Shown here: positions 19,628 to 20,512 of the stretch, in pieces
Position numbering within the stretch: the first letter of the stretch is position 1
Layout of the letters: each line of letters opens with the position of its first letter
Assembly: GCA_002077065.1 (NCBI GenBank)
Contig: NAJO01000021.1
Location: 1-64,000 of the forward strand
DNA: 64,000 bases
Direction of reading: 5' to 3'
From: Cryoendolithus antarcticus
Lineage: Eukaryota > Ascomycota > Dothideomycetes > Cladosporiales > Cladosporiaceae
Position numbers and translations under genes: made by a program
The notes under the pieces: model-generated
Told to the model about the DNA's origin: nothing
The model's database searches: none
The model's input: only the letters and a program-made list of their open reading frames with translations

Positions 19628-20512
19628 ATGTCTGGCCTCACAGCCTTGAGCGTACCGGGCCTCTTTCTTACATGTGTCAACTACTTCGAGCTCATCCAGC
19701 TCGGCCGCAACTTCAAGTCCGACTATGCCACCTGTGCTATTAGATTGGAAGCTGCTCACATCCATCTACTGCGCTGGGGCAAGGCAGTAGACATTACGAA
19801 TACCGAAGCCTTGCAGGCCAAGCTCTCAGCATACAAGGAAGAAGACGTCGACTTCGCGAAAGACCTACTGGGAGAGATCAAAGAGAAGTTCGAACGGGCC
19901 GAGAAAGACTCTGGCTCCTTCAAGAAACGCGCAACTCGTAATGCAAGCGCCAGCACCGAGACCGACACTGAAGTCCTCGATCCGAGCGCAGAGCTGCACC
20001 TTGCCTCCAAAGAGCACATCACCGCCAGTAAAGCTCTGACCAAAATCAAGCATGGTTACACCGAAGCACTGAATGTCGTAAGTGGGGCCCACAACCGAAC
20101 GAGATGGGCTCTCTACCAGAAGAAGAATCTCAAAGCCCTCGTAGATGAAGTCTCGGGGCTAGTCACAGAGCTCGAGAAGCTCTTCCCAGACATCGATCCC
20201 GAGATGACGCAGCGCGAGGATCAGCTAGCCAGAGACGAAGTCGCGACGCTGGACAAAACTACCTTGGAACTCCTGCCTGCGCTGCTCGAAAACACCGATC
20301 CATTTTTCACGGCGGCCGTCAAGAGTGTAGAGAAGCTGCGTGGGCTCGACATCCGAGACGTCAGTATTGACGGCGACGGCATAGTTCATATGGGGAATAA
20401 GTACGCGCCAAATCAACCACACGACGGTGGCAGCAGTATCAGCATCGGCAGCCTTAGTGTGAAGGGCAGTGCAAATTCACATATCGGACACAGCTTTGGG
20501 TACGCGAAGTAG
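19628..20512 (+). CDS. HET-S-like HeLo-domain protein with two C-terminal amyloid-type repeats
   Basis: A single exon from ATG 19628 encodes 294 residues, close to the 289 of Podospora HET-S. Residues 1-230 are a HeLo domain, recognised by the N-terminal Gly-Leu-Phe-x-x-Cys-Val-x-x-Phe-Glu segment, then Gln-Leu-Gly-Arg-x-Phe, then Leu-Arg-Trp-Gly-Lys-Ala-Val. In HET-S this domain becomes membrane-active and kills the cell when the C-terminal prion-forming domain folds as a beta-solenoid. Two repeats are visible at residues 245-260 and 276-291. They share hydrophobic-Ser-hydrophobic-x-Gly, then His-hydrophobic-Gly, then an aromatic residue, 31 residues apart. This is the layout of the HET-s prion domain. 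Residue Asn28 aligns with HET-s position 33 (Pro in HET-s, His in HET-S). Assignment of the repeats is by eye. No STAND/NLR partner gene lies in this window. Confidence 0.75.
   Translation: MSGLTALSVPGLFLTCVNYFELIQLGRNFKSDYATCAIRLEAAHIHLLRWGKAVDITNTEALQAKLSAYKEEDVDFAKDLLGEIKEKFERAEKDSGSFKKRATRNASASTETDTEVLDPSAELHLASKEHITASKALTKIKHGYTEALNVVSGAHNRTRWALYQKKNLKALVDEVSGLVTELEKLFPDIDPEMTQREDQLARDEVATLDKTTLELLPALLENTDPFFTAAVKSVEKLRGLDIRDVSIDGDGIVHMGNKYAPNQPHDGGSSISIGSLSVKGSANSHIGHSFGYAK

What the first reader, a model, noticed from the sequence alone, without database searches (positions are those of the whole stretch)
19628..20512. HET-S-like HeLo protein with two C-terminal amyloid-type repeats
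Length (294), HeLo motifs and two repeats at residues 245-260 and 276-291 match the architecture of Podospora HET-S, whose C-terminus forms a two-layer beta-solenoid prion. HeLo proteins in Dothideomycetes are common, but one keeping a two-repeat prion-type tail is a candidate amyloid-triggered cell-death effector.
Basis: partly seen in the sequence, partly recalled or inferred. Interest (0 to 1): 0.75.

Follow-up and report, generated by a model that had tools for sequence, protein, structure and literature searches.

The report
HET-S-type cell-death protein with amyloid tail
This gene from an Antarctic rock-dwelling fungus encodes a probable membrane-attacking cell-death protein whose tail carries two amyloid-type repeats, a known kind of fungal immune effector, here without a likely receptor gene beside it.

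Summary

The genome (assembly matches Cryoendolithus antarcticus; many genes duplicated) holds a second HeLo two-repeat pair and, on other contigs, receptor-like genes with one motif copy at the N-terminus: a NACHT-ankyrin pair, TPR STAND-like genes, and ankyrin genes without a detected NACHT. No NLR was found beside the window gene. Most likely it is a HET-S-like pore-forming effector switched on by amyloid templating from a receptor encoded elsewhere. New member of a known kind; function untested.

The parts
19628..20512 (+). Single-exon gene for a 294-aa HeLo protein with a two-repeat HRAM-type tail
   Evidence: P0002 98% identical and second copy P0003 78% identical
19640..20260 (+). HeLo domain (residues 5-211)
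19640..19696 (+). Hydrophobic N-terminal segment (residues 5-23), taken as the equivalent of the HET-S membrane-attacking helix (inferred)
   Evidence: most hydrophobic 19-mer of the protein, mean Kyte-Doolittle 1.34; helix 9-22 in the model
20339..20401 (+). HRAM-type repeat r1 (residues 238-258, motif glycine G256)
   Evidence: strands 240-247 and 251-255 in the model
20402..20431 (+). Loop between repeats (residues 259-268), poorly conserved
   Evidence: 4 of 10 residues identical to the second copy against 34 of 42 in the repeats, Fisher p=0.016
20432..20494 (+). HRAM-type repeat r2 (residues 269-289, motif glycine G287)
   Evidence: strands 271-278 and 282-286 in the model; dN/dS 0.04 against the second copy, on 21 codons only

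Best explanation
The gene encodes a HET-S-type cell-death effector. At rest the N-terminal HeLo bundle is soluble and the tail is unfolded. A receptor carrying one copy of the motif (r0) at its N-terminus oligomerises on sensing its ligand; the clustered r0 copies form a beta-solenoid template; the two tail repeats fold onto it as two stacked rungs; this refolds HeLo and pushes its hydrophobic N-terminal helix into the membrane, killing the compartment. Shown here: HeLo domain, two in-register repeats, purifying selection between the two copies, and r0-like motifs at the N-terminus of other genes of the genome. Inferred from HET-S/NWD2: amyloid templating, pore formation and receptor pairing. 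No receptor gene was found beside it. By motif similarity the window gene fits best with the C128 ankyrin-type r0, and the second HeLo pair (C83/C81) with the C95 NACHT-ankyrin NLR; this pairing is tentative.
For: HeLo. Two repeats with the same 31-residue offset in sequence and in model strands. G256 and G287 invariant in a 10-sequence alignment made without reference to the motif. Leave-out profiles. dN/dS 0.12 HeLo, 0.18 r1, 0.04 r2 against the second copy; 34 of 42 repeat residues kept versus 4 of 10 in the loop. Receptor side: the HeLo-repeat profile finds an r0 in the first exon of 2 of 36 NLR loci, a duplicate pair, iE 3.8e-4 and 5.2e-3, against 2.6 for the next hit and 3.1 for the best reversed ORF; a 46-nt intron joins r0 to the NACHT exon in both. 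Similarity: window r2 to C128 r0 51; C83 r2 to C95 r0 54. Mechanism from PMC4344463 (abstract) and PMC12881547 (passages).
Against: PF11558 not met. Motif position 15 is I/N rather than R/K, position 3 is L/I rather than N/Q/H, r2 position 16 is S. r1 alone scores poorly in the leave-out profiles. A profile of the 11 r0 motifs does not list the window tail among its best six hits in 1568 ORFs, and the window tail as query finds only itself and its second copy in the genome, so pairing is weak; the C63 r0, duplicate of C95, scores only 32 with C83 r2 and 19 with window r2. No NLR in 19 of the other 35 window ORFs of at least 180 aa or found on contig C64. Model confidence in the repeats is low (pLDDT about 44-55); the tail folded alone gives short strands in r1 and none in r2.
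Confidence: 0.7

Rival explanations
1. Decayed or inactive effector: HeLo is intact but the tail repeats have drifted so far that they no longer template; the gene is a relic or a HET-s-like (small s) inactive variant.
For: Departures at motif positions 3, 15 and 16; PF11558 not met; no NLR found beside it. The residues aligned to HET-S/s positions 23 and 33 are N/N here, neither the D/P of 2wvn nor the A/H of 2wvo; the second copy has D at the first of these.
Against: Purifying selection on HeLo and on the repeats, stronger than on the loop; repeats kept in P0002 and P0006; the position-33 equivalent is not proline.
Confidence: 0.15
2. Effector triggered without a receptor: tail-to-tail prion-like spread between unlike strains (allorecognition), as in HET-s/HET-S incompatibility.
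For: No NLR found beside it; two diverged copies in one genome that could cross-template, r2 86% identical.
Against: r0-bearing receptor-type genes exist in the genome; no population data here.
Confidence: 0.1
3. The tail is a linker in a HeLo-cutinase fusion, as the gene models of a relative suggest (P0006: HeLo plus cutinase).
For: P0006 is annotated as one 565-aa protein with PF14479 and PF01083; P0002 runs on past the repeats.
Against: In the window and in P0003 the ORF stops a few residues after r2; the cutinase ORF is separate; fusion of an intracellular HeLo protein to a secreted enzyme is implausible (inference).
Confidence: 0.03

Closest known systems
HET-S / NWD2 of Podospora anserina (HRAM1, PF11558 tail)
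   Different: Tail fails PF11558; HRAM1's N at position 3 and the positive residue at 15 absent; no adjacent NLR found
HRAM-bearing HeLo-related proteins (HRAM1-5), PMC4518210
   Same: Position-19 glycine in both repeats, hydrophobic 5/8/10/18, loop of 10 aa (range there 6-18), under 310 aa; 57 of 155 there also lack an adjacent NLR (155 minus 98)
   Different: None of the class-diagnostic residues (N, Q or H at 3; Q at 16 or 18)
Zymoseptoria tritici HeLo protein P0004
   Same: HeLo plus two HRAM-type repeats, 33% identity
   Different: R at position 15 in both repeats and H at position 3 of r1; longer C-terminal extension
HeLo pair C83/C81 of the same genome (L007/L008)
   Same: HeLo plus two repeats with similar spacing (loop 11 aa)
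   Different: 23% identity to the window protein; r2 closest to the C95 NACHT-ankyrin r0

Membership tests
HRAM-type HeLo effector | N-terminal HeLo domain | tested here: met
HRAM-type HeLo effector | Two motif copies in the last 80 aa, local alignment score >=20 and length >=15, loop 6-18 aa | tested here: met
   score 31, length 20, loop 10 aa; criterion from PMC4518210. My own BLOSUM62 alignment with gap costs 10/1, not EMBOSS matcher itself
HRAM-type HeLo effector | Glycine at motif position 19 and hydrophobic residues at 5, 8, 10, 16, 18 | tested here: met
   G in both repeats; 9 of 10 hydrophobic positions, r2 position 16 is S
HRAM-type HeLo effector | Preference for R/K at position 15 | tested here: not met
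   I and N; stated as a preference, not an absolute rule
HRAM classes 1-5 | Class-diagnostic residues: N, Q or H at 3 (HRAM1, 2, 3); Q at 18 (HRAM4) or 16 (HRAM5) | tested here: not met
   3 = L/I, 16 = V/S, 18 = M/I; so not filed in any of the five classes
Canonical HET-s prion domain (PF11558) | Pfam gathering score 32.2 bits | tested here: not met
   13.7 bits, profile 47-65 only; only 38 of 155 two-repeat proteins match it in PMC4518210
HET-S/NWD2-type gene pair | Adjacent NLR gene with N-terminal r0 | tested here: not met
   nearest ORFs are a DUF3824-like gene (18.9 bits, below cut-off 22.7) and a cutinase; no NLR in 19 scanned ORFs or on contig C64 in three family searches, which are not exhaustive
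HRAM signalling pair, partner elsewhere | r0-bearing receptor elsewhere in the genome | tested here: met
   C95/C63 NACHT-ankyrin genes with an N-terminal r0 exon; that either is the partner of this gene was not shown
Functional amyloid effector | Beta-solenoid fold and fibre formation of the tail | tested here: inconclusive
   strand pattern as expected but pLDDT about 44-55; tail alone gives no r2 strands; fibres need experiment
Functional amyloid effector | Membrane attack and cell death on tail conversion | not testable with these tools
   needs experiment

The most novel reading that the evidence does not exclude
The genome runs a dispersed amyloid-signalling network on an undescribed HRAM subfamily: two HeLo effector families and at least seven receptor-type genes on other contigs share one motif, split into two co-varying groups (window HeLo with ankyrin proteins that lack a nucleotide-binding domain; C83/C81 HeLo with the NACHT-ankyrin NLR). 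Ankyrin proteins without such a domain would then act as amyloid triggers, a new receptor architecture.
Probability: 0.2. Interest if true: 0.6.

Novelty: new member of a known kind. Interest (0 to 1): 0.4.

Why it matters
It extends HET-S-type amyloid death signalling to an Antarctic endolithic fungus, shows a tail that the standard profile misses, and gives receptor candidates with which specificity between parallel motif groups in one genome could be tested directly. If ankyrin proteins without a NACHT domain really seed such effectors, the definition of an amyloid-signalling receptor would widen.

Tried and rejected
The DNA-level repeat search found nothing; the repeat is visible only in protein. 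PF11558 and PF17108 over the genome gave only sub-cut-off matches (1 and 7); of the 7, three (C59, C65, C89) led to motif-bearing genes and four (C72, C106, C69, C140) were dropped, as the repeat profile gave nothing convincing there. The first homologue search gave 4 hits, the alignment-based one 8. P0011 was left out of the repeat set because its second repeat was unclear, and P0002 because its tail repeats that of P0006; 22 repeat copies from 11 proteins gave 17 distinct ones. The copies were anchored by hand on the motif glycine, so the presence of that glycine in all 22 is by construction.

A profile of the 11 r0 motifs does not list the window tail among its best six hits. The window tail as a query finds only itself and its second copy, not even the C83/C81 HeLo genes. 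The C89 and C92 receptor-type genes appear in none of the three NLR family searches, so those searches miss members. The window begins at base 1 of contig C64, so the gene lies 19.6 kb from a contig end; linkage beyond that end cannot be judged. The splice test found no fitting intron for C128 and C92. Foldseek lists only HeLo structures at E<=0.001 (4 matches) and the VIA rows mostly span residues 4-223, so the tail was not really compared with solved amyloid structures; the tail-alone model was too poor to search.

Considered and rejected: HeLo-cutinase fusion (stop codon present); chance HeLo look-alike (E 1e-33); contaminant contig (the second copy at C76 has the same DUF3824-like neighbour as the window). 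On checking this report I lowered the probability of the novel case from 0.25 to 0.2, because the C63 and C59 scores blur the two proposed motif groups.

Full report

The genome. The second copy P0003 carries the tag B0A48_13377 of Cryoendolithus antarcticus and lies on a contig of 521462 bases, the length of contig C76 of the window's own assembly, so the window very probably comes from that species' assembly. The genome announcement for Rachicladosporium antarcticum CCFEE 5527 (abstract and main section read) gives 47.4 Mb, 267 contigs and 18,781 genes; the assembly held here has 46,965,068 bases in 149 contigs, so the versions differ. That this is the older name of the same fungus is recalled. 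Three of the HeLo sets come in pairs (C64/C76, C83/C81, C107/C69), as do the NACHT-ankyrin genes and C57/C113, so much of the genome looks duplicated or hybrid. Synonymous divergence of the window pair is 0.90.

The tail. The best local self-alignment of the last 80 aa is ungapped, 240-259 with 271-290, score 31; 8 of 300 shuffles reach it. On its own that is modest. Five further lines add to it. (1) In an alignment of 10 homologues, made without reference to the motif, G256 and G287 are both invariant and H254 nearly so. (2) Profiles that leave out the window gene and its second copy (13 repeats, or 10 from five more distant proteins) place the window ORF first of 1568 ORFs, sequence E 0.0013 and 0.00019; r2 scores 10.3 and 10.2 bits against maxima of 9.2 and 9.6 among 2000 shuffles (1388 and 1407 of which gave a score), while r1 alone reaches only 3.8 and 5.8 bits. 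(3) AlphaFold puts strands at 240-247 and 251-255, and at 271-278 and 282-286, the same 31-residue shift, although pLDDT there is only about 44-55 and the tail folded alone shows strands in r1 only. (4) Between the two copies 34 of 42 repeat residues but 4 of 10 loop residues are kept (Fisher p=0.016). (5) dN/dS is 0.12 for HeLo, 0.18 for r1 and 0.04 for r2, the last two on 21 codons each. In 22 hand-anchored repeat copies from 11 proteins the hydrophobic pattern recurs; the glycine is there by construction.

Against canonical membership. PF11558 reaches 13.7 of the required 32.2 bits. In Daskalov et al. 2015 (PMC4518210; abstract, first part of the results, co-evolution section, discussion, methods, tables and legends read), position 3 is N in HRAM1, Q in HRAM2, H in HRAM3; HRAM4 and 5 have Q at 18 and 16; R/K is preferred at 15. 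The window has L/I at 3, I/N at 15, V/S at 16, M/I at 18. It fits the general pattern (9 of 10 hydrophobic positions, both glycines, a loop of 10 aa within 6-18) but no named class. Only 38 of that paper's 155 two-repeat proteins match PF11558, so that failure is not decisive.

Partner gene. In that paper 98 of 155 such genes sit next to an NLR with one motif copy. Here the nearby ORFs are a DUF3824-like gene (below cut-off), a mannosyltransferase, a cutinase and an alpha/beta hydrolase, and none of 19 of the other 35 window ORFs of at least 180 aa has a NACHT or NB-ARC match. Genome-wide, 26 NACHT, 36 NPHP3_N and 10 NB-ARC matches (overlapping sets, lower bounds) include none on contigs C64, C76, C83 or C81. 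These searches are not exhaustive: the STAND-like genes at C89 and C92 appear in none of the three. The window starts at the contig's first base, so the gene is 19.6 kb from a contig end.

Receptor-type genes with the motif. Scanning 36 NLR loci (124 kb, 3464 ORFs, some loci overlapping, 10 or more further NPHP3_N places not held) with the HeLo-repeat profile gives two clear hits, L018 (C95) and L020 (C63), iE 3.8e-4 and 5.2e-3; the next is 2.6 and the best reversed ORF 3.1. Both lie in a short first exon that starts at ATG and is joined by a 46-nt intron (donor GTAAGT in C95, GTGAAA in C63) to a NACHT exon, followed by ankyrin repeats. That r0 as query found C128 (E 0.0066), C92 (0.08), C57 (0.105) and C113 (0.112). 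C128, C57 and C113 are followed by ankyrin repeats with no NACHT match in the ORFs scanned; C89 and C92 by DUF7779 (28.7 and 27.3 bits, cut-off 27) and TPR repeats. At C89 a 52-nt intron gives a P-loop-like GLGGAGKSQ; at C113 a 65-nt intron is one of four candidates that join r0 to the ankyrin ORF; for C57 only GTG-donor introns passed; none fitted for C128 and C92. Motif-bearing N-termini at C65 and three at C59 precede proteins of unknown type. In ungapped similarity, window r2 scores 51 with the C128 r0, then 41 with one C59 copy, 40 and 39 with C57 and C113, 31 with C95 and 19 with C63; C83 r2 scores 54 with C95, 46 with C89, 43 with C128 and 32 with C63. I chose and registered the r0 segments by hand, and the shuffle fractions are not corrected for that, so the grouping is a lead only.

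Mechanism. From PMC4344463 (abstract) and PMC12881547 (passages): in Podospora the N-terminal motif of NWD2 templates the HET-S tail into the beta-solenoid, which activates the HeLo domain to attack the membrane through its N-terminal helix. The window protein has a counterpart of each part: hydrophobic N-terminal segment (residues 5-23), HeLo bundle, two repeats, and r0 genes in the same genome. At the positions that separate HET-S from HET-s (23 and 33; the D23A,P33H title of 2wvq, and the alignments) the window has N and N, so it is not of the proline type.

Known or new. HeLo with a double HRAM, and HRAM NLRs away from the HeLo gene, are known: PMC9815663 (passages) reports Sphaerobolus with 95 kb as the shortest NLR-HeLo distance. 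In the passages of PMC9815663, PMC5485727 and PMC12881547 that my term searches returned and in the listing I saw no HRAM-type r0 on ankyrin proteins without a nucleotide-binding domain; that speaks for those searches only.

Verdict. A real HET-S-type effector gene, ordinary in kind, with a divergent tail; the other motif bearers in its genome are the more interesting part.

Noticed in passing
L018 (C95:379357-380128) and L020 (C63:159825-160614): Duplicate pair of NACHT-ankyrin NLRs with an N-terminal HRAM-type r0 exon joined by a 46-nt intron.
   Followed up: yes
L053/L057 (C128), L055/L059 (C57), L056/L060 (C113): Ankyrin-repeat proteins without a detected NACHT domain that begin with an r0-like motif.
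   Followed up: partly
L048 (C89:155991) and L058 (C92:133258): TPR STAND-like genes with an r0-like motif near the start codon; returned by none of the NACHT, NPHP3_N and NB-ARC searches.
   Followed up: partly
L043/L044 (C59:703900-708700) and L047 (C65:43850): Small genes, tandem at C59, whose N-terminus carries an r0-like motif followed by a second short motif (RDxxGN[IV]TN[FL]YQxN); two of the downstream ORFs were scanned and have no Pfam match over cut-off.
   Followed up: partly
L007 (C83) and L008 (C81): Second pair of HeLo proteins with two HRAM-type repeats, next to a glycine/glutamine-rich ORF.
   Followed up: partly
P0002 and P0006 (Rachicladosporium sp. CCFEE 5018): Public gene models run the HeLo protein on past the repeats, in P0006 into a cutinase domain; probably an annotation error that hides the true C-terminus.
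   Followed up: no
L006 (C63:332370): HeLo match whose ORF runs on into a stretch that looks kinase-like to me (LHAVNWIHKGICSDSILL), possibly a HeLo-kinase; three stops inside the six-frame match.
   Followed up: no
L001 (C4:9542-10135): HeLo gene with a different C-terminus (TRVLNQIAGDQTLYGAQTFTL), perhaps another amyloid-type motif; one TAG inside the six-frame match.
   Followed up: no
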